Origin: Erythrobacter sp.
GTDB taxonomy: Bacteria > Pseudomonadota > Alphaproteobacteria > Sphingomonadales > Sphingomonadaceae
NCBI RefSeq assembly: GCF_024305245.1
Contig: NZ_JAMWYX010000001.1
Span: 124,001-188,000, forward strand
DNA: 64,000 nucleotides
Reading direction: 5' to 3'
The position numbers and the translations under genes were made by a program. The notes beneath the pieces were generated by a model. That model saw only the letters and a list, made by a program, of their open reading frames with translations. It did no database searches and was not told the origin of the DNA. Shown piece by piece: positions 53,315 through 64,000 of this stretch (positions are counted from its first letter, which is position 1; every line of letters begins with the position of its first letter).

Positions 53315-53498
53315 CGGATCCCCTATTGTCTTGTTGTTATTTTCCCCGGCTCAAGGCCGCAGCCAAGATGCAGCCAGCGAGACCAACTTGCAAGCACTGG
53401 TGCGGGGGTGCTGCCGGCCAGCATTTCCGCGCATTTAAAGGTTTTGTTAACCGATCCGATTCACGCTTTTCGAAGGGGTGCTGGGGCATTGCCTCGTC

Positions 53499-56216
53499 AT
53501 GTCAGGCTCGCCCGCCAAATTACCTGCAACACACGGATTCGTCGCGACCGACCTAACGGAAGTCGATGCCGTCGACGGGCGCGCTGCGCCGGACGAAGGC
53601 GACACGCGCGCTGCGGGTGAACGACGGGCGAGCGAGCGTCTGCAACCGGCACGGCTCGCGGATCTGGCGCAGGACGCCAACGAATCCATAGAGGAACAGC
53701 GGTTCTATCTGCCGCAGGGCGCCCGCGGCATGGCGGTTTCGCTGATTGTCGCCCTCGGCATTGCTGCTGCAGTTTCACCCGCCTTGCCGGAATGGCCCTC
53801 GGCGCTTGCGGCGGTGATTTCCATCGGCCTGTTTGTAGCCTGCCCCTGGTTCGCCGCGATCGAGCGCCGAAACGAAGCTTCGCTTCCGACGCGATTGCTG
53901 CTGGTCGTGGTGGCCAATCTCCTGCCGATGGCCTGCGCCGGCTTCGTGCTGGGATCGGGGATAGCCGACGGGCTGCCATGGCAGTGGTCGGTCGCCACGC
54001 TGGTGTGCATCAATGCGGCGGCATCCGTATTGTTCGTAGGGCGCATCGCCTCGCTGTTCGGTGCCAAGATCGCAAGCTGGGCAGGGCTCGTGCTGATCGC
54101 AACGCCAAGCCCGCTCACCGTCGCTGCGTTAACCGGTGCGGGGGTTACGCTGGCCCTGATCGCGCGGGTAGAATGGCGAGCGGCCGAGCGACGCCGCGAA
54201 CTTCGCAATGCGCGCGAGCGGGTCGCAGCGCGGGCAGAGGACATCCTCAAGAGCTTCGAGGAAAGCGGGCAGGGCTGGTTCTGGGAAACCGATCGACGCG
54301 GGCTGATTACCTATATCTCGCCGAAGGTGGCGTCCTTGCTGGCGCGCGGGGAAGAGAGCTTGCGCGGGGTTCCGCTGCGCGAAATCATGGGTTCCGGCCC
54401 CGAAAATGCCGAGGCCGAGCGTTCGCTCGCCTTCCATGTTTCGGCGCGCTCGGCGTTTCAGGATCTCGAATTGCTTGCGGCCGCGCCCGGGGAAGAACGC
54501 TGGTGGGCGCTGACGGGGCGTCCGGTTTACGATTCCTACAAGAACTTCTGCGGGTTCCGTGGACATGGAACCGATCTGACCGAACAGCGCCGCAGCGAAC
54601 AGCAGGTTTCGCGTCTGGCGCTTTACGATTCGCTGACCGGCCTGGCTAACCGCGTCCAGATGAGTCAGGCGCTCGAACAGATTCTTGCCGCCCCGGCCAA
54701 GCGCGAACGCGCGTGCGCCGTGCTGATGCTGGATCTCGACCGGTTCAAACAGGTCAACGACACGCTCGGCCATCCTGCTGGCGATGCCTTGCTGAAACAG
54801 GTGGCGCAGCGGCTCGAACGCGTGATCGGTGCCGATGGACGCTGCGGCCGGTTGGGGGGTGACGAGTTCCAGATCATTCTGCCCGGGGACCGCAGCCGCG
54901 AACAGCTGGCAACATCAGCCGACGATGTGATCGAGGCTCTTTCAAAGCCCTATATGATCCTGGGGCAAAGCGTGGTGATCGGTGCCTCGGTCGGGATTGC
55001 GCGCGCACCGACGGACGGGAATACAAGCGAGCTGCTGATCCGGAATGTCGATCTGGCGCTCTATGCCGCGAAGGACGCCGGACGCGGGGTGTTCCGCTTC
55101 TACGAGCCGGGACTACATGCCGCGGTCGAGGAGCGGGCGGAGCTTGAGCAGGATTTGCGCGGCGCGATCACGCGCGGCGAATTGCAGCTTTGCTATCAGC
55201 CGATCGTGTACGCCGCGAGCGAGACAGTCGTCGGTTTCGAGGCGCTGATGCGCTGGAACCATCCGCGCCGCGGATTGCTTTCGCCGTCGCGCTTTATCCC
55301 GATTGCCGAAGATTCGGGCCTGATCGAACGGCTCGGCCAATGGGCCTTGCAGACTGCCTGCGCCGATCTTGCGCGCTGGCCGGAGAAGATTCGCTGTTCG
55401 GTCAATGTTTCGGCAATGCAATTCGCCAACCCCGAACTGCCGACCATCGTTGCCAGCGCGTTGGCGCATAATGGGATTTCGCCTTCGCGGCTCGAACTGG
55501 AGATTACCGAAAGCGTATTCGTCAGCGATACGCCGGGGATCGAGGCGACGTTCCGGGCGCTCAAGCAACTGGGTGTGCGATTGGCGCTCGACGATTTCGG
55601 GACCGGCTATTCTTCGCTCGGCTACCTTCGCAAAGCGCCGTTCGATCGCATCAAGATCGACCGCAGTTTCGTGCGCGGCGCGACCGAACAGGGCAGCCGC
55701 AACGGGGCGATCATCGCCGCTATCACCAGCCTTGCCGAAGTGCTGCACATGGATACCACCGCCGAAGGGGTCGAAACCCACGACGAACTGGAACTGGTCC
55801 GGCTGCTCGGCTGCAGTCATGTGCAGGGGCACATCTATTTCGAACCGATGAGCGTCGAAGATGCCGCCGCGCTGGTTCTGGGCGATCTTGTTGCTGTTGC
55901 CAGCGGTCCGCTCTCGTCCCGCGCGCAGCGGCATGTTCTGCTGCGCCGGGTCATATTGGTGCATGGCGGCGGCCGCCAGAATGTGACCTTGCGCAATATC
56001 TCCGAAGGCGGCGCCATGATCGAAGGCTTGTGGAACATGGAGGTGGGCTGCGAAGTGCGGATCGAATTCAGCCCGGCCCAAGCGGTCAACGGACAGATCC
56101 GCTGGTCGCGCGAGAACCGGATGGGTATCGAATTCCATCTGCCCTTGCGCACACGAGACGATGGCTCCTTCGCACTGCCCAGAGGCAGCCATGTGGAGCT
56201 GGCCGATCAGGCTTAG
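53499..56216 (+). CDS. Membrane PAS-GGDEF-EAL-PilZ protein (cyclic-di-GMP turnover)
   Basis: A 905-residue protein. The N-terminal region (about 70-220) has several membrane helices, followed by a PAS domain (ESGQGWFWETDRRGLITYIS), a GGDEF domain with GRLGGDEF at 451-458, an EAL domain with EAL at 581-583 and DDFGTGYSSL (698 onward), EGVET (756-760), and a C-terminal PilZ-like region with NVTLRNISEGGAMIEGLW. Both catalytic motifs are intact, so it could make and break cyclic-di-GMP. ATG at 53499 is preferred; a GTG at 53478 is possible. Confidence 0.93.
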   Translation: MSGSPAKLPATHGFVATDLTEVDAVDGRAAPDEGDTRAAGERRASERLQPARLADLAQDANESIEEQRFYLPQGARGMAVSLIVALGIAAAVSPALPEWPSALAAVISIGLFVACPWFAAIERRNEASLPTRLLLVVVANLLPMACAGFVLGSGIADGLPWQWSVATLVCINAAASVLFVGRIASLFGAKIASWAGLVLIATPSPLTVAALTGAGVTLALIARVEWRAAERRRELRNARERVAARAEDILKSFEESGQGWFWETDRRGLITYISPKVASLLARGEESLRGVPLREIMGSGPENAEAERSLAFHVSARSAFQDLELLAAAPGEERWWALTGRPVYDSYKNFCGFRGHGTDLTEQRRSEQQVSRLALYDSLTGLANRVQMSQALEQILAAPAKRERACAVLMLDLDRFKQVNDTLGHPAGDALLKQVAQRLERVIGADGRCGRLGGDEFQIILPGDRSREQLATSADDVIEALSKPYMILGQSVVIGASVGIARAPTDGNTSELLIRNVDLALYAAKDAGRGVFRFYEPGLHAAVEERAELEQDLRGAITRGELQLCYQPIVYAASETVVGFEALMRWNHPRRGLLSPSRFIPIAEDSGLIERLGQWALQTACADLARWPEKIRCSVNVSAMQFANPELPTIVASALAHNGISPSRLELEITESVFVSDTPGIEATFRALKQLGVRLALDDFGTGYSSLGYLRKAPFDRIKIDRSFVRGATEQGSRNGAIIAAITSLAEVLHMDTTAEGVETHDELELVRLLGCSHVQGHIYFEPMSVEDAAALVLGDLVAVASGPLSSRAQRHVLLRRVILVHGGGRQNVTLRNISEGGAMIEGLWNMEVGCEVRIEFSPAQAVNGQIRWSRENRMGIEFHLPLRTRDDGSFALPRGSHVELADQA

Positions 56217-56306
56217 CAAGTGATTATCCTAAGGCTTTAACTCTTCGGCTTAGTCAAAAAATAACCATCCAGCTTTACTCCTGACACAGCAATCGGAGCA
56301 ATCCGC

Positions 56307-58535
56307 GTGAAAGCGGGTGCTGCGAAATTGGAGGTTGTGCCGAAAGTGTCCCTTAAGGGTCTCTTGTCAGTCCGTGGTTCTGCCGCGTCGCGCGCGCCGC
56401 GCGGCGAAGTCGCTTCGGCCCTGTCCGATGGCGAACGACTGGCGATGCTCGATGAACTCGAACGATCGGGGTTGGGCTGGTTCTGGGCGAGCGATGCCGC
56501 AGGCAAGCTGACCTACATTTCGGCCAAGATTGCCGAGCGGCTCGATGTGTCGCTCGATACCTTGCTGGGCCAACCGCTCACCGCGATCTTTACGGCGGCC
56601 GAACGCGAAGGCCGTTCCAAGTCGTTGCCGCTGATGATGGGCGCGCACAAGGCCTTTTCCGGCATGGCAGTGCGCGCGGCGCGGCGGCCCGATGGCCCGG
56701 TTCTCCGGCTGGCAGGGCAGCCGATCTTCAGCGACGGCGACCGGTTCCTCGGTTTTCGCGGCACCGGCGCGGATATTACGAACGAATTCTTCCGGGAGGA
56801 GGAGACCGCTCGCCTTGTTCGGGTCGATTCGCTCACCGGCCTGTCCAACCGCCATCGCATGGCCCACCACATCGAAACCACCCTGACCGCGTTCAAGGCG
56901 GCGAAACGCAATTGCGCGGTTATGATGCTGGATCTCGACCGGTTCAAGCATGTCAACGATACGCTGGGCCATGCTGCCGGCGACCAATTGCTCAAACAGG
57001 TTGCAGAGCGCCTGACGCGCGCGATCGATCGTGAGTGCGAAATCGGCCGATTGGGCGGCGACGAATTCCAGGTCATGCTGCCTGATATCGACGACCGCGG
57101 CGTGCTGGGCGAACTGGCGGCAAAGATCATCGCCATGCTGCGCCAGCCCTATAGTCTGGACGAAGGGCGCTGTGTGATCGGCGCATCGGTGGGTGTCGCG
57201 ATTGCTCCGCATGACGGCGTGACCTGCGACGAAATCGTGCGGGCTGCCGACCTTGCGCTTTATGCCGCCAAGAACGGTGGACGCGGGCAATATCGTTTCT
57301 TCTCGGGCGAGCTTGAGAATGAGACGATCTTTCGCCGCAGGCTGGAACAGCATCTCGGAGAGGCGCTGCAAGAGGAGCAGCTTTTCCTGCAGTTCGAACC
57401 GATCGTCGACGCCGCGTCGCAGGCGGTGCAGGGGCTCGAGGCGCATGTGTGCTGGGACCACGCCGAACGCGGGATCATCGATCACGAGGAGTTCGCCCAG
57501 ATCGTCGAAGGGTCGAGCCTGCTTGGCGAGGTCGGGATGTGGGCGATCGGCGAAGCCTGCCGCAGCGCGGCGCAGTGGCCCGAGAACCTGCGCATTGCGG
57601 TCAACGTGCCGGTGCCGCTGTTCCTGTCCGAGACCTTCGTGGAAGACGTCAGCGCGGCGCTGGATGCCACGGGCATCGCAGCCGGAAGGCTGGAACTGGA
57701 GATCAGCGAGGCTGTATTCTTCGGCGACACCACGATCGTCGACCGCACGCTGGCAAGCCTGTTCAAGCTCGGCGTGCGCATGACGCTGGACGAATTCGGC
57801 TCGGGCTATTCCTCGCTCGCCTATCTGCGCCGTGCTCCGTTTGATGCCATCAAGATCGATCAGAAGCTGGTGGCCGAATCCGAACGTCACGATAGCCGCG
57901 AACTGGGGCTGGTGCGCGCGATCGTGGCCTTGGCCGGAGCGCTGGGGATGGATACCATCGCCAACGGCATCGAAAGCCCGGCGCTGCTCGCGATGCTCAA
58001 CGAATCAGGGGTGCGCTATCTGCAAGGCCCGATTTTCAGCGAGCCGGTCGATCAGGATATGGTCGCTGATGAAATCGCCGGCGGAACATGGAAGATCACG
58101 CCCGATTCGAACCGCACCCGCCGGGCCAAGCGACGGACCGTTTTCCGTAAGATTCAGGTGTTCCACGATGATTACGCCTACGAGGTCACGCTCCGCAATC
58201 TGTCCCGGACCGGTGCGTTCATTCAGGGTCTGGCGGATGTGCCCAAGGGAACGCAGTTCGTGGTGGATCTGGGCGGCGGACAGCTGGCGGTCGCGACCGT
58301 CACCCGATCGAGCGGCGACACGCAAGGCCTCGAGTTCGAACAATCGCTGATCGATGATGGCTCGGGCGGGCTGTGCACCCGCAACCGCGTCTCGCCCTAT
58401 GCCTTGGCCTCAGCCGGAGCACCGCTCGCTGCACTGGCGCCGGGGAGCTATCAGGGAATGATGGGCGGACTGATCGATCAGAGCGGCGCGCCCAAGTTCG
58501 GCTATGCCCCAGGCTCCCGGCTCGAAGCGGGCTGA
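56307..58535 (+). CDS. PAS-GGDEF-EAL-PilZ protein with degraded EAL site
   Basis: A 742-residue relative of the preceding protein without membrane helices, so cytoplasmic. A PAS domain (ERSGLGWFWASDAAGKLTYI), a GGDEF domain with intact RLGGDEF (about 248-254) and an EAL domain follow. In the EAL domain key residues differ: EAL is EAH (378-380), DDFGTG is DEFGSG (495 onward) and EGVE is NGIE (553-556). The C-terminal PilZ-like region has YEVTLRNLSRTGAFIQGL. It probably makes cyclic-di-GMP but does not hydrolyse it, with EAL acting as a sensor. It starts 90 bases after its neighbour. Confidence 0.9.
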   Translation: MKAGAAKLEVVPKVSLKGLLSVRGSAASRAPRGEVASALSDGERLAMLDELERSGLGWFWASDAAGKLTYISAKIAERLDVSLDTLLGQPLTAIFTAAEREGRSKSLPLMMGAHKAFSGMAVRAARRPDGPVLRLAGQPIFSDGDRFLGFRGTGADITNEFFREEETARLVRVDSLTGLSNRHRMAHHIETTLTAFKAAKRNCAVMMLDLDRFKHVNDTLGHAAGDQLLKQVAERLTRAIDRECEIGRLGGDEFQVMLPDIDDRGVLGELAAKIIAMLRQPYSLDEGRCVIGASVGVAIAPHDGVTCDEIVRAADLALYAAKNGGRGQYRFFSGELENETIFRRRLEQHLGEALQEEQLFLQFEPIVDAASQAVQGLEAHVCWDHAERGIIDHEEFAQIVEGSSLLGEVGMWAIGEACRSAAQWPENLRIAVNVPVPLFLSETFVEDVSAALDATGIAAGRLELEISEAVFFGDTTIVDRTLASLFKLGVRMTLDEFGSGYSSLAYLRRAPFDAIKIDQKLVAESERHDSRELGLVRAIVALAGALGMDTIANGIESPALLAMLNESGVRYLQGPIFSEPVDQDMVADEIAGGTWKITPDSNRTRRAKRRTVFRKIQVFHDDYAYEVTLRNLSRTGAFIQGLADVPKGTQFVVDLGGGQLAVATVTRSSGDTQGLEFEQSLIDDGSGGLCTRNRVSPYALASAGAPLAALAPGSYQGMMGGLIDQSGAPKFGYAPGSRLEAG

Positions 58536-58614: not shown

Positions 58615-60432
58615 ATGACAGACCTTTCCAAGATCCGCAATTTCAGCATTATCGCCCACATCGATCACGGCAAGTCGACGCTTGCCGACCGGCTGATCCA
58701 GTTCACCGGTGGCCTCACCGCGCGCGAGATGTCGGAGCAAGTCCTTGATAACATGGACATCGAGAAAGAGCGCGGGATCACCATCAAGGCCCAGACCGTG
58801 CGCCTCAACTACACGGCCAAGGACGGCGAGACCTATCAGCTCAACCTGATGGACACCCCCGGCCACGTCGACTTCGCGTACGAAGTCAGCCGCTCCCTCG
58901 CCGCGTGCGAGGGCGCGTTGCTTGTCGTGGACGCGGCACAAGGCGTCGAAGCCCAAACCCTCGCCAACGTTTACCAATCGATCGAGCACGACCACGAAAT
59001 CGTCCCCGTCATCAACAAGATCGACCTGCCCGCCGCCGAGCCCGAAAAGGTCCGCAACGAGATCGAGGAGATCATCGGCCTCGACGCATCGAACGCGGTC
59101 ATGACCAGCGCCAAATCGGGCATCGGGATCGAGGACGTGCTCGAAGCCGTCGTCACCCGCATCCCGCACCCGCAGGGCAAGATCGACGCGCCGCTCACCG
59201 CCAGCCTCGTGGATTCGTGGTACGACCCGTACCTTGGCGTCGTCATCCTCGTGCGCGTGATCGACGGCAAGCTGACCAAGGGCCTCAACATCCGCTTCAT
59301 GCAGGGCGGCACCCAGCACCTCGTCGACCGCGTCGGCTGCTTCACCCCCAAGCGCACCGACCTTGGCGAACTCGGCCCCGGCGAAATCGGCTTCATCACC
59401 GCCCAGATCAAGGAGGTGGAGCAGGCCCGCGTCGGCGACACCATCACCACGGTCAAAAACGGCGCGAGCCAAGCGCTGCCGGGCTACAAGGAAGTGCAGC
59501 CGGTGGTGTTCTGCGGGCTGTTCCCGGTCGACGCCGCGGACTTCGAAAAGCTGCGCGAAAGCATCGGCAAGCTGCGGCTGAACGACGCCAGCTTCTCCTA
59601 CGAGATGGAATCCAGCGCCGCGCTCGGCTTCGGCTTCCGCTGCGGGTTCCTCGGCCTGTTGCACCTTGAAATCATTCAGGAACGGCTCAGCCGCGAATAC
59701 GACCTTGACCTCATCACCACCGCGCCTTCCGTGGTGTACCGCATCCATCTTGGCCACACCAAGAACGAGGATGCCAAGGTCATCGACATCCACAATCCCG
59801 CCGATTGGCCGGATGTGAACCGGATCGAGATGATCGAGGAACCGTGGATCAAGGCGGTGATCTACACCCCCGACGAATATCTCGGCAGCATCCTGAAACT
59901 GTGTCAGGATCGCCGCGGCGTGCAGACCGAACTCACCTATGTGGGCGGCCGCGCGCAGGTGACGTATGAACTGCCGCTCAACGAAGTGGTGTTCGATTTC
60001 TACGACCGGCTGAAGTCGATTTCACGCGGATATGCCAGCTTCGATTACGAACAGATCGGCAACCGCGAAGGCGATCTGGTGAAGATGAACATCCTCGTCA
60101 ACGCCGAAGCGGTCGACGCGCTCAGCCTGATCGTCCACCGCCACGTCGCCGAAGAGCGCGGGCGCGGCATGTGCGAACGCCTGAAAGACCTGATCCCGCG
60201 CCACCTGTTCAAGATCCCGATCCAGGCCGCGATCGGCGGCAAGGTGATCGCCCGCGAAACCATCGCCGCGATGCGCAAGGACGTGACCGCCAAGTGTTAC
60301 GGCGGGGACATCTCGCGCAAGAAGAAGCTGCTGGACAAGCAGAAGAAGGGCAAGGCGAGAATGAGAGAGTACGGCAACGTCTCTATTCCTCAGGAAGCTT
60401 TCATCGCCGCTCTTCGTATGGGTGAAGAGTAA
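58615..60432 (+). CDS. lepA: Elongation factor 4 (LepA)
   Basis: A 605-residue translational GTPase that can back-translocate ribosomes. G1 is [14 protein letters not shown], the G2/G3 segments are [16 protein letters not shown] and [17 protein letters not shown], and the C-terminal domain ends [19 protein letters not shown]. From about 60355 codon usage changes abruptly (AGA, TCT, ATT, CCT, CTT, CGT) from the gene's usual GC-rich choices. A second copy of the final 19 codons plus stop, with native-type codons, lies at 60492-60551, so the end was probably replaced by incoming DNA. Confidence 0.97.
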
Positions 60433-60759
60433 CCTCTCTCATTCTGAGGATGCGGGAGCGCCGCAGGCGGCCTGCCCCGGCGAAGGCCGGGGGGAATGTC
60501 TCGATCCCGCAGGAAGCGTTCATCGCGGCGCTAAGAATGGGCGAGGAGTAACGCTCTCTGTCTCTGTCCTGCAAAAGAGTTGATCTGAAATTCAAACGCG
60601 CGGGCTATGCTCTTGCAATAAGTCTGTTAGAAAACAAAAAGTGACGGGGTCCCGCTGCCAGATCATCGCAATGGGTCGCTTCAGCAAAAGCGTTTATCGC
60701 CACGTTGTCTATGGGGGAGGATTGAAGTGACCTCCTGTTGAAGAAAAGCGGATCAAAAA
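60433..60759. other. Island boundary region after lepA
   Basis: No gene is seen here. Bases 60475-60492 form a CCCCGGC-GAAG-GCCGGGG hairpin of a kind common between sphingomonad genes. The displaced lepA end lies at 60492-60551. After about 60580 the sequence becomes AT-rich. A 19-codon open frame at 60671-60730 (MGRFSKSVYRHVVYGGGLK) lacks a ribosome site and similarity that I know. Confidence 0.6.
60492..60551 (+). repeat. Displaced second copy of the lepA 3' end
   Basis: This 60-base stretch encodes [19 protein letters not shown] and a stop, exactly the last 19 residues of LepA plus stop. It aligns without gaps to 60373-60432. Twelve of the 20 codons differ, all synonymously (13 base changes). 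The copy has GC-rich codons like the rest of lepA, whereas the in-frame copy is T-rich. It is not attached to an open reading frame of its own. It is best explained as the original lepA end pushed downstream by integration of foreign DNA carrying a substitute end. Confidence 0.88.
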
Positions 60760-62108
60760 GTGGAAATGCACAAATCGATCAAATGGCTTCATCTCTCGGA
60801 TGTTCATTTTTCCGGTAGAAACTCATACGATCAAAACCGGCTAGTTTCCGCCCTGTTGAAATCATTGCCAAATTTAACCCAGAGGTTTGGCGCTCCGGAC
60901 TTCGTTTTTTTACGGGTGACATCGCTAATACCGGTAAGGCCGAATAATATCGCGAAGCAGAAAAATTCTTTGAAGATTTGTTGTCCACGTTGGGATTGGA
61001 ACGAAAGAGGTTACTTTTGGTCCCAGGCAATCATGATGTGGACCGCGCATTCAATGCAGGCCTTAGCCGAGAATTCAACGAACGAAGAGATATCGATAAC
61101 CTGTTCGGGGGCAACTCGGTTTATAAAATAGAAAAACGGCAGCGTGCTTTCAAAGAATGGTATGAGGGTTACTTTACCGATCGTCAATTTCCATTAGAGT
61201 CGACGACTTATATCATTGAAAACTTTGAAAATCAAGGGTTACCGATTGAGATCGTCGGAATAAATTCGGCGGCATTTTCATTTGACGACCAGGATCAGGG
61301 AAAACTTATTATTTCCCAGCGTTGCATTGAAGAAATTAACAAATCTCAGCGCGCCGATGGAACTTTGAGAATTGGTCTAATTCACCATCCGTTGTCTTGG
61401 CTATCTGAGATCGAGAGGTTGCCTGTCCGAGCTGCAATTAGTGATGCGTTTGATTTATTGTTGCATGGCCATTTGCATGGGAACGAGGTTGAGATCGCGC
61501 ATGGCTCAAGCGGGCACTTGATTACGATAGCTAGTGGAGCTTTGTACCAAGGCTCGAATTGGTTAAATGTTGCTAATTTTGCAACACTCGCGGGTTCGGA
61601 TTTAACTGTTCAACCAATTCGGTATCATGATTCACCGAGGGAGATTTGGACACAGGATACCTCACTTTTCCCGAATGATCCGGCATATGCTGGTCGCTTT
61701 TTCGTCCAGCGCCGCAGAAAAGATACAACAGGCGCATTGCTGTCGATTGAGGGCACCTCAATCGAGCAAATCCTTACAGCAGATAACTTATCCGGCGGAT
61801 GGCAAAGCGGCCTTTTCGTGGCACCTTCCGGAAAGCTGATCTACACTGAGCCCCGCCTTTGCCGCAAACCGCAATCAGCGGCATTGGAATTCGATGAGAC
61901 CTTGGATGCAATTTCTATCTCGGATTTTCTAGAGTGTAGAAAATCGTATGCAATCGACACTCGCTCTGAATATGGCGGATCAACCTTGCTCGGCAGGCTC
62001 TCGACTGAAATGTCGCTTCGCGGAATGAGTTATTTTTCCGGCGATGCGCGCACTTTACCCAATTATAAGAAAAAACTCGTTGAGAGTATAACAAATGGTA
62101 AAAAATAG
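60760..62108 (+). pseudogene. Calcineurin-like metallophosphoesterase, first part of a broken MPE-STAND gene
   Basis: The phosphoesterase domain is readable across two frames. The first frame gives IKWLHLSDVHFSG, then at a T-run (60905-60911, seven T where eight are needed) it shifts; the continuing frame gives TGDIANTGKAE, a TAA stop at 60945-60947, and YREAEKFFEDLLSTLGLERK with VPGNHDVDR, HHPLSWLSE and LHGHLHGNE. Metal-ligand motifs D-x-H, GD, GNHD and GHLHG are all present. After about 61900, a degenerate P-loop-like segment (SEYGGSTLLGRLSTEMSLRG) follows. The frame ends at 62106-62108 by a shift in an A-run. It is AT-rich and foreign in composition. Confidence 0.85.
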
Positions 62109-62140
62109 AAGACAAGTCAATTATTATATTATTAGATAAT

Positions 62141-63826
62141 GTGGATCTCGAGAGAGATCGAAAGATGATTTCTGAACTCGGTAAAATTGAATGCGTATCC
62201 CGTATTATTGCTGTTTGTGCCAATAGAGGGCTTACGCCAGCAAGTGGGATTGTGTTGCAAGAGATTGGCCTCCAGTTCGAACAATTGTACCTTTGGACAC
62301 TGTCGCGCGCTCAGATTAGGGAGTTGACAGAATCGTTTTTTGACACAGACGATTTTGAGATGACTTCACTAGTCACTCAAAAGGTGTATGATGATCTGCT
62401 GGGTCTGTGCATACCTTTGACTCCTAATAACGTCATTATGTACATGAAAATACTTTTCGTTGATGGGAATTTTATTCCTATAAACCGAGTTGATATTCTT
62501 CAGAAATTTTTGATGGACTCATTGAGAAGGCCGAGCGATAGTTTTACGGGTTCCTTCAATTATAGAAATAAAATCGATATTATTGCGGAATTTTCTAAGC
62601 TATTACTTCGAGAAGAAAGGGGGTACTTCACACAAAAGGACTGGCTTAATTTTTGTGATGAGTTCAAAGCGAGGACACTTTTAGGTTTTAATTCCAACTC
62701 TATTTTAGATGAAATTCTAGAAGCCCGCATATTTGCGAGATCAGGAGAGCGTATCTTTTTCAGGTATGGATTTTTCTATTCTTTCGCCCTTGGATCTGCC
62801 TTGAATAGCGATCAAGGGGCACTTGATGAATTTCTCCAAGATCGTAACTACACTAGCGTCTCTGATGTGCTTGATGTTGTGACTGCACTAAATCCAAATA
62901 GCGACCGAATAATCGATGCGTTAGGTAGTGATCTTGTCCGGGCACTTCAAGAGTTTCAGGAGCAAGTAGTAAAAGAAAATTTTGACCCTTTGTTGGATGC
63001 TCTTTGGGCGTCAAATGATAAAGAAGATGAGCAGACATGGCAGCCTATTGCGAAAGCAATTTCCGAGGGGCCCGAAAAGCCCGAGAAGATTGATAGCCTC
63101 AAGTCATCTTATTTGGCAGAGGCTCGGACCGCTGATCAAGAAGTAACAATAAAAAAGTTCCACGAAATTGAATACAATTTGGTTATAATTAAAAAAAATC
63201 TTGTCGAGGTTTTGAAGAATGTCAACGACGTTGATCGTGATAAGAAGGTGTCTGCTTATGAGAGCCTTCTAAAAGCTGAGCTTTGTTCTTTCCAAGTTGG
63301 AACGGTATTTGCACCCGAGTTGGCTCAAAGTAGGTTTTATCGTTGGGGTGCCATAGCCTTCCTCGACTTTAACAAGGCTGCAAAGGATTTAAATCCCGTG
63401 TCGGCTGAAGCCATCTCGAATGTCGTTGTTTCGCTGTCGCGTTCCGTTGCGATAAAGAGCCGTCAAGATCTTGCATTTCAGAAGCTCGGAGGAATTTTTG
63501 CTGACCGAGCACTAAGGACTGTTTCAGTAGGTTATCTGGAGGTTTTGAATTTTTACCACCTGATAGGCGGCAGAGCTGAGGGATGGGAGAAAGCGGCAGA
63601 GCACCTGCTTGAGAAGGCAAGTCCGGGGAGTCTGTACCTTTTGATAATGTTACGGGGAATATTGGATGAACTTAAGCATGACGTGGTCAGGATAGGCGAC
63701 CGCTCAAAACTTAAGCGCCTCGTAGCTTATACACGGGCAAAGCGTATGTACGTCGTTTCAAAGCCAAGTGATCAGCAGATCGCGAATTTTATTCAAAAAA
63801 TGAGCAAGGAAGAGTTGATAGCGTAG
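62141..63826 (+). CDS. C-terminal part of a STAND-type NTPase (likely fragment of the upstream gene)
   Basis: As an independent gene this would be a 561-residue AT-rich protein with a GTG start. Read in the same frame from 62102, the sequence just before the GTG gives KIEDKSIIILLDNVD, a Walker B-like strand. SRIIAVCANRG follows as a sensor-like element, and FEQLYLWTLSRAQIRELTESFF resembles the helical/winged-helix part of STAND NTPases. Beyond about residue 200 it is helical, without named domains. It would join the preceding frame if the A-run at 62100-62105 held one more A. I regard it as the second half of the same gene. Confidence 0.7.
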   Translation: MDLERDRKMISELGKIECVSRIIAVCANRGLTPASGIVLQEIGLQFEQLYLWTLSRAQIRELTESFFDTDDFEMTSLVTQKVYDDLLGLCIPLTPNNVIMYMKILFVDGNFIPINRVDILQKFLMDSLRRPSDSFTGSFNYRNKIDIIAEFSKLLLREERGYFTQKDWLNFCDEFKARTLLGFNSNSILDEILEARIFARSGERIFFRYGFFYSFALGSALNSDQGALDEFLQDRNYTSVSDVLDVVTALNPNSDRIIDALGSDLVRALQEFQEQVVKENFDPLLDALWASNDKEDEQTWQPIAKAISEGPEKPEKIDSLKSSYLAEARTADQEVTIKKFHEIEYNLVIIKKNLVEVLKNVNDVDRDKKVSAYESLLKAELCSFQVGTVFAPELAQSRFYRWGAIAFLDFNKAAKDLNPVSAEAISNVVVSLSRSVAIKSRQDLAFQKLGGIFADRALRTVSVGYLEVLNFYHLIGGRAEGWEKAAEHLLEKASPGSLYLLIMLRGILDELKHDVVRIGDRSKLKRLVAYTRAKRMYVVSKPSDQQIANFIQKMSKEELIA

Positions 63827-63885: not shown

Positions 63886-64000
63886 TCAAGGATCAAACCC
63901 CTCATCCTTCAACGTCCACTCCGTCTTCGGCGGCTCCGGCTCCGGCGACACGTACGGCCCCGGCGGTGTTGACCAGGGGCCGTCGCTCAGCGGCGTGATA
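63886..64000 (-). CDS. C-terminal part of an unidentified protein (cut by window edge)
   Basis: The last 37 codons of a high-GC, minus-strand frame, reading PLSDGPWSTPPGPYVSPEPE and ending LKDEGFDP. The Pro-rich stretch and GC-rich codons are native in character, so the AT-rich block ends close to 63830. The product is unknown. The evidence is an open frame with consistent codon use and a stop at 63886-63888. Confidence 0.5.
   Translation of the reverse strand, partial: ITPLSDGPWSTPPGPYVSPEPEPPKTEWTLKDEGFDP

What the first reader, a model, noticed from the sequence alone, without database searches (positions are those of the whole stretch)
60355..60551. The lepA 3' end is duplicated with only synonymous differences, a scar of site-specific insertion
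The last 19 codons and stop of lepA (60373-60432) recur at 60492-60551. The encoded residues are identical, yet 12 of 20 codons differ, all synonymously. The in-frame copy uses T-rich codons unlike the rest of lepA, and the detached copy uses the native GC-rich style. A simple tandem duplication would give near-identical DNA, so one copy must come from a different lineage in which selection kept the protein. The simplest account is a mobile element that integrates at the lepA 3' end and supplies a replacement end. The two copies are only 59 bases apart, so most of the element may have been lost, or further DNA was later inserted to the right.
Basis: partly seen in the sequence, partly recalled or inferred. 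Interest (0 to 1): 0.82.

Follow-up and report, generated by a model that had tools for sequence, protein, structure and literature searches.

The report
Stacked replacement ends of lepA
In this bacterium the tail end of a conserved gene (lepA) has been swapped for a foreign copy that encodes the same protein, with old tails left stacked beside it, and the same kind of swap is seen in some of its relatives at a spot where anti-virus genes come and go.

Summary
lepA in the window (58615-60432) ends in a foreign-looking but synonymous 3' end; the native-style end lies 59 bp downstream (60492-60551) and a third, decayed end at 60614-60723. Relatives show the same: 16 of 102 lepA loci carry 18 detached lepA ends (0 in reversed sequence). 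Synonymous divergence jumps in the last 25 codons of lepA, not clearly at the ends of recN, ligA or bamD; sharp jumps cluster at codons 574-588 (31 of 39). Recoded ends, a two-hairpin motif and detached ends are scattered over the lepA tree, and the window's end is closer to two species' ends than their gene bodies are, so the end moves horizontally. The inserted piece looks like a compact 119-bp unit: codons 587-605, stop, one arm of a 12-bp inverted repeat, two hairpins; one relative has two in tandem. Its strong matches lie only at lepA. The neighbouring slot is a defence-gene hotspot; no tyrosine integrase was found near it. So a mobile piece supplying a replacement end is broadly supported, an integrase island mostly deleted is not. 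The agent is unknown: a site-specific tiny unit, or one-sided homologous uptake.

The parts
58615..60432 (+). lepA (elongation factor 4), 605 aa
   Evidence: ORF; Pfam GTP_EFTU and LepA_C
60358..60432 (+). recoded 3' end of lepA, codons 582-605 plus stop (replacement end, copy 1)
   Evidence: GC3 0.52 over the last 25 codons versus 0.87; synonymous jump; nearest matches are ends of species with more distant bodies
60373..60491 (+). inferred 119-bp insertion unit: lepA codons 587-605, stop, right arm, GGATGCGGGAG, two hairpins
   Evidence: repeat spacing 119; like architecture in 9 loci; tandem units in G345
60358..60369 (+). left arm of 12-bp inverted repeat AGAATGAGAGAG, inside lepA codons 582-585
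60434..60445 (+). right arm of the inverted repeat CTCTCTCATTCT, just after the stop codon
60448..60458 (+). GGATGCGGGAG, same sequence as lepA codons 582-585 in many relatives
   Evidence: direct comparison
60459..60474 (+). hairpin 1 CGCCGCAGGCGGCCTG
   Evidence: (one exact match in own genome, two more at 2 mismatches elsewhere)
60475..60492 (+). hairpin 2 CCCCGGCGAAGGCCGGGG (two pairs with compensatory change across relatives; last base shared with copy 2)
60492..60551 (+). detached native-style lepA end, 19 codons plus stop (copy 2)
60614..60723 (+). decayed older lepA end, about codons 568-605 (copy 3)
   Evidence: nhmmer E 4e-6; tblastn piece
60760..62108 (+). AT-rich cargo: metallophosphoesterase part of a broken defence-type gene, in two frames
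   Evidence: PADLOC PDC-S60 E 1.6e-24 for 60978-62108
62141..63826 (+). AT-rich cargo: C-terminal part with weak nSTAND NTPase match
   Evidence: E 4.2e-4, under the curated cut-off
63886..64000 (-). 3' part of the conserved right neighbour F1 (weak Sf6 terminase small-subunit-like match), which continues beyond the window; right border of the variable slot

Best explanation
The 3' end of lepA is a recurrent landing site at the left edge of a defence-gene hotspot. A small horizontally moving unit (here 60373-60491) enters between lepA codons 586 and 587. It brings codons 587-605 with a stop, so lepA stays whole, and pushes the old end to the right, where it decays. Later arrivals enter at about the same point, so ends stack with the newest on the left; the window has three. 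Shown: horizontal origin of the in-frame end, recurrence, scattered distribution, clustered left boundary, recurrent hairpin/codon-587 junction, stacking. Inferred: that the piece moves as a unit, that a recombination activity supplied in trans acts at this point, and that the inverted-repeat arm (complementary to codons 582-585 just upstream) and the hairpins are its recognition or DNA-end structures. It works like gene-end-restoring integration by genomic islands, but without an island or integrase in sight.
For: Synonymous differences in the last 25 codons of lepA are 0.51 versus 0.18-0.35 in the other windows (229 pairs of at least 95% aa identity). In the same-genus set the last window of lepA is 0.58 (others 0.26-0.46), while the last windows of recN (0.49), ligA (0.51) and bamD (0.51) lie at or within the top of their own ranges (0.37-0.52, 0.35-0.57, 0.27-0.51). 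39 of 86 lepA genes show a sharp jump against their nearest relative, 31 of them at codons 574-588 (reciprocal pairs are counted twice). 18 detached ends in 16 of 102 loci, 0 in reversed sequence. On a tree of codons 1-577 of 99 genes, 12 rows with AGA/AGG-recoded ends need 12 changes, 9 hairpin-block rows 9 and 16 detached-copy rows 16. A hairpin model searched over 396 Sphingomonadales genomes gave 8 matches at E 2e-10 or better in 7 genomes (own included), all at lepA, two of them 114 bp apart in G345 with lepA ends between and after them. 7 of 92 lepA ends have at least 9 nt of perfect pairing between codons 581-586 and the first 25 nt after the stop, in covarying versions; 7 of 1368 swapped pairings reach that.
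Against: No recombinase gene was found in or near the locus, and no circular or excised form was seen. In-frame and detached copies share no exact overlap longer than 8 nt, as conservative site-specific recombination would leave unless drift erased it. Left boundaries fall into two main clusters (579-581 and 585-588), not one; 8 of 39 lie far upstream (439-544), and long detached copies start near codons 547-551, as ordinary recombination would give. The 12-bp arm pairs with codons outside the inferred unit. In 4 of the 9 hairpin loci (L078, L094, L096, L104) the in-frame end is not AGA-recoded, and in L078 and L104 other repeats stand in place of the arm. Hairpin covariation is modest: 2 of 5 measures are no better than shuffles, and the fold of 60352-60495 has z -1.9 with 8 of 200 shuffles as stable.
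Confidence: 0.5

Rival explanations
1. Ordinary uptake of relatives' DNA. Incoming lepA-end-plus-slot DNA recombines by homology on the left, in a relatively conserved lysine-rich stretch of lepA, and joins illegitimately on the right (homology-facilitated illegitimate recombination, HFIR). The old end is left behind. Repeated lepA ends then allow misaligned exchange that adds or drops units.
For: Codons 569-580, just left of the main boundary, have lower synonymous difference (printed values 0.03-0.53, 6 of 12 at 0.12 or less). Detached copies start at several points (about codons 547-551, 568, 581, 587-588, 590, 596; from the profile coordinates). Detached ends sit beside cargo in a hotspot with turnover. 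HFIR is a described process (abstract of PMC3240628).
Against: Nearly the same hairpin/codon-587 junction is seen in 9 loci whose records bear several genus names, and two tandem units of different sequence share it in G345; this needs one founder event plus spread as a block. On recount the lysine-rich run is not nearly invariant, so I lowered this rival slightly (from 0.33).
Confidence: 0.3
2. One reading: a normal integrase-bearing island entered at the lepA 3' end and was almost wholly deleted.
For: Replacement end plus displaced native end is the classic attL/attR layout. In L046, L053, L097 and L103 a gene stands between lepA and a detached end (three of the four read by eye from the sequence).
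Against: No integrase match within the held 20 kb of lepA in 10 genomes, four of them with shorter contigs. Integrase is not among the 25 commonest Pfam families of each set of slot proteins (148 in all; rarer families were not shown). Slots bounded by a conserved right-hand gene are at most about 5.6 kb; unbounded ones were not measured. The compact unit is found in several species.
Confidence: 0.1
3. A homing nuclease or RNA-guided nuclease cuts the native lepA end; recoded ends are immune and spread by repair, as in the fungal mitochondrial C-terminal duplications.
For: Synonymous recoding with the native end left detached is what PMC3630166 reports for fungal mtDNA (passages read). HNH_2 is the commonest slot family (4 of 69 and 7 of 79 members).
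Against: HNH-family proteins are in slots with recoded (L042) and unrecoded (L035) ends; the window has no nuclease between the ends (59 bp). PADLOC HNH models match such proteins, one of them described as a type II restriction enzyme.
Confidence: 0.05
4. Simple tandem duplication followed by drift.
For: Two copies in tandem.
Against: 12 of 20 codons differ with no amino-acid change even in the copy that is no longer part of lepA, GC3 0.47 versus 0.79, and copy 1 matches the ends of L017 and L011 better than their bodies match.
Confidence: 0.02

Closest known systems
Genomic islands that reconstitute the gene they insert into (passages of PMC12884075; phage 21/e14 in E. coli icd is recalled only)
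   Same: Insertion in a gene, supplied replacement end, displaced native end, sporadic distribution
   Different: No integrase found, no identity block over 8 nt, unit about 119 bp, repeated stacking at about one point in several species
Mobile endonuclease (mORF) C-terminal duplications of fungal mitochondrial genes (passages of PMC3630166)
   Same: Foreign in-frame C-terminal end with synonymous differences; native end detached downstream
   Different: No endonuclease between the ends here; bacterial chromosome; hairpin unit
REP/MITE-type palindromic repeats
   Same: Short, hairpin-rich, inverted-repeat arms
   Different: One exact copy in the own genome, strong matches confined to lepA; carries a protein-coding gene end
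Homology-facilitated illegitimate recombination (abstract of PMC3240628)
   Same: One homologous and one illegitimate junction would give this layout
   Different: Would not by itself give nearly one right junction in several species

Membership tests
Integrase-mediated genomic island with gene-end reconstitution | Host gene kept whole by an end supplied with the insertion | tested here: met
   605-aa LepA intact, native-style end detached
Integrase-mediated genomic island with gene-end reconstitution | Integrase gene in the element | tested here: not met
   no PF00589 match within 20 kb of lepA in 10 genomes, as far as contigs reach; serine recombinases not searched
Integrase-mediated genomic island with gene-end reconstitution | Exact identity block at both ends (attL/attR) | tested here: inconclusive
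   longest exact run shared by copies 1 and 2 is 8 nt (read); drift could have erased a block
Integrase-mediated genomic island with gene-end reconstitution | Sporadic distribution among relatives | tested here: met
   12 rows/12 changes, 9/9, 16/16; 33 of 96 inner branches weakly supported
mORF C-terminal duplication | Endonuclease gene between new and old C-terminal ends | tested here: not met
   59 bp between the copies
mORF C-terminal duplication | Foreign synonymous in-frame end, native end detached | tested here: met
REP/MITE repeat | Multiple dispersed copies per genome | tested here: not met
   one exact match in 3.5 Mb, two at 2 mismatches; one model match in the own genome
Homology-facilitated illegitimate recombination | Variable illegitimate right junction | tested here: inconclusive
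   near-fixed junction in the hairpin class, variable starts in the other detached copies
Known Rfam RNA | Match to a curated family | tested here: not met
   0 matches to E 1 in 60300-60800

The most novel reading that the evidence does not exclude
A new kind of tiny mobile unit: about 120 bp, with no enzyme of its own, carrying the end of the gene it enters, folded into hairpins, and with an arm complementary to the target just upstream that directs it to one point between lepA codons 586 and 587.
Probability: 0.15. Interest if true: 0.85.

Novelty: new variant of a known kind. Interest (0 to 1): 0.6.

Why it matters
It shows a housekeeping gene whose end is repeatedly swapped, near one point, next to a defence-gene hotspot that has no visible recombinase. 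How such hotspots gain and lose cassettes is open; here arrivals leave scars in order (detached gene ends), so they can be ranked in time and their junctions read.

Tried and rejected
Simple tandem duplication: rejected. End-of-gene codon relaxation: not supported by the recN, ligA and bamD controls. Genomic REP: rejected. Known RNA family: none. Phage or plasmid form of the unit: IMG/VR pattern scans gave one contig, which holds whole lepA and restriction-modification-like genes read by eye, so I take it for a chromosomal piece. The lepA tails in the plasmid listing (20 of 49 rows seen) were on chromosome-sized records or annotated as lepA. The phage hits were weak (best E 1e-3, at most 66.7% identity, for example Listeria and Enterococcus records) and not followed. 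Duplicated end of the right-hand gene F1: no shared motif seen by eye at the right border. Literature: the listings of searches showed no account of lepA as such a site in this group, and searches returned no paper; only open-licence papers are held. One search was flawed (minus-strand loci read unreversed) and is replaced. The tree (12, 8 and 15 changes) was misaligned for lepA genes of other length and is replaced (12, 9 and 16). Rows dropped: 7 named loci in which my lepA finder failed and 4 duplicates; 7 rows with other C-terminal length before (they stayed); one search also required a start Met, leaving 86. Only slot ORFs of at least 130 aa in slots with a recognised right border were scanned (148); some may be spurious antisense ORFs.

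Full report
What is there. The window lies in a 3.5-Mb genome whose closest named relatives in the lepA scan are Porphyrobacter/Erythrobacter. lepA is 58615-60432. Its last 19 codons and stop recur at 60492-60551, 79% identical in DNA and 100% in protein. The in-frame copy has GC3 0.47, the detached copy 0.79, the lepA body 0.87. Recoding starts at codon 582. A perfect 12-bp inverted repeat flanks the recoded end: 60358-60369 in lepA, 60434-60445 just after the stop. A third, decayed end (about codons 568-605) lies at 60614-60723. Then comes AT-rich DNA (GC 0.38-0.49) with a broken metallophosphoesterase/nSTAND-type gene, and at 63886 the conserved right neighbour F1 on the minus strand.

Whose end is it? 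Copy 1 is 95% and 91% identical to the ends of G016 (L017) and G003 (L011), whose lepA bodies are 88% identical. Copy 2 has no such outliers: its best match is 88%. Among the 15 closest bodies, identity to copy 1 ranges from 0.67 to 0.91 and to copy 2 from 0.74 to 0.88. So copy 1 looks horizontally acquired; that copy 2 is the native end follows from its style rather than from a close sister.

It is recurrent. Over 99 distinct lepA genes the last 25 codons differ synonymously at 0.51 versus 0.18-0.35 in the other windows for close pairs (229 pairs), and at 0.53 against a mean of 0.31 (sd 0.04, highest 0.41) over sliding windows for pairs of at least 92% aa identity. In the 30 same-genus lepA genes the last window is 0.58 against 0.26-0.46. 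The last windows of recN (27 sequences), ligA (27) and bamD (17) are 0.49, 0.51 and 0.51, at or within the top of their own ranges. Against the nearest relative, 39 of 86 genes have a strong jump towards the end, and 31 of these fall at codons 574-588 (reciprocal pairs are counted twice). As a control, 12 of 86 show a jump in either direction within the first 300 codons, 7 of them before codon 42. Detached lepA ends: 18 in 16 of 102 slots, all on the lepA strand, none in reversed sequence. On a MAFFT-aligned tree of codons 1-577, 12 recoded rows (codon 582 AGA, or codon 584 AGA/AGG) need 12 changes, 9 hairpin-block rows 9, 16 detached-copy rows 16. Caveats: 33 of 96 inner branches are weak, and there is about one genome per species, so loss could explain part of the scatter.

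Anatomy of the unit. In 9 loci the gap between the lepA stop and the detached end holds GGATGCGGGAG (exact in 6 of 9; the sequence of codons 582-585 in many relatives), hairpin GCGCC..GGCG and hairpin CCCC..GGGG, then within a base or two codon 587 of the detached end. A tenth locus (L085) has only part of the first hairpin and no detached end. Two pairs of the second hairpin show compensatory change; cells changed on both sides and the covariation score exceed all 500 shuffles, but the numbers of such pairs and pair types do not (393 of 500 reach them). The RNA fold of 60352-60495 is only modestly stable (z -1.9). In 7 of 92 loci the arm after the stop pairs perfectly with codons 581-586 over at least 9 nt, in covarying versions; 7 of 1368 swapped pairings do so. 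37 of 396 genomes had some match at E 0.001; of 23 weaker loci that I could inspect, 2 (L164, L168) hold the lepA end and the other 21 do not. G345 carries two tandem units 114 bp apart: lepA end, arm, hairpins, lepA end, arm, hairpins, decayed lepA end. G148 has the hairpins but no detached end that I can see. In the own genome the hairpin-1 pattern has one exact match and two at 2 mismatches elsewhere. In 4 of the 9 loci (L078, L094, L096, L104) the in-frame end is not AGA-recoded, and L078 and L104 have other repeats instead of the arm.

Setting. Between lepA and F1/BamD most relatives have cargo of their own, up to about 5.6 kb where a right border was recognised; a few gene families recur and some slots are nearly empty (80-360 bp in L040, L049, L064, L089). 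Among 148 slot proteins the commonest PADLOC matches include restriction-modification proteins, PifA, AbiU, Thoeris ThsA/ThsB, UG5-nitrilase, AriA, GajA-like proteins and HNH nucleases (first 25 of 202 and of 275 families shown). Integrase is not among the 25 commonest Pfam families shown (of 45 and 84), and no PF00589 match lies within 20 kb of lepA in 10 genomes, as far as contigs reach. In L046, L053, L097 and L103 a gene stands between lepA and a detached end.

How it works, and how sure. The firmest statement is that lepA 3' ends in this group have been replaced repeatedly by horizontally acquired, protein-preserving ends, with old ends displaced to the right. I put the mechanism at about even odds. 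The near-fixed hairpin/codon-587 junction, the tandem units and the arm complementary to the DNA just upstream favour a small unit entering at one point. The lower divergence of codons 569-580, the scattered starts of other detached ends, the far-upstream jumps (8 of 39) and the absence of any recombinase favour homologous capture on the left with an illegitimate right junction. Neither is proven.

Relation to the known. Islands that rebuild the gene they enter are well known (passages of PMC12884075). Fungal mitochondrial elements replace C-terminal ends synonymously and leave the native end detached (passages of PMC3630166). HFIR was seen in the abstract of PMC3240628. Phage 21/e14 in icd is recalled, not read. 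The combination found here (tiny, enzyme-less, stacked, lepA-specific) matches none of these in full.

Noticed in passing
L033, L034, L041, L044, L053, L058, L102, L114 just after the lepA stop: Another conserved, strongly palindromic sequence (AGCCCCGCG...GCGAGAGGC...CCGGCCGGCGGG...) follows lepA in many relatives; a strict pattern found it once per genome, beside lepA, in 3 of 6 genomes. In L081 a copy lies at the F1 side of the slot in reverse orientation. Best Rfam hit is far below threshold (asX3, 18 bits versus 40).
   Followed up: partly
window 60760-63826: A metallophosphoesterase/nSTAND-type defence gene (PADLOC PDC-S60) that is broken into separate frames.
   Followed up: partly
slots of the 102 lepA loci (Erythrobacteraceae and other Sphingomonadales): The lepA-to-BamD interval is a hotspot for varied anti-phage systems; no integrase among the commonest families.
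   Followed up: yes
window 63886 onward and L151-L153: F1, a conserved protein with a weak Sf6 terminase small-subunit-like match, borders the slot and has two further matches in the own genome.
   Followed up: no
L046 and L103: A small lysine/alanine-rich gene (looks like DUF6481, name recalled, read by eye) stands between lepA and a detached lepA end in both; a similar one follows lepA in L164.
   Followed up: no
L086 and L147 after the lepA stop: A repeat of CCCTGAGCTTGTCGAAGGG type directly abuts a short detached lepA end (about 9 codons) in both genomes.
   Followed up: partly
window 53478-58535: Two neighbouring GGDEF-EAL-like genes upstream of lepA (read from the translations).
   Followed up: no
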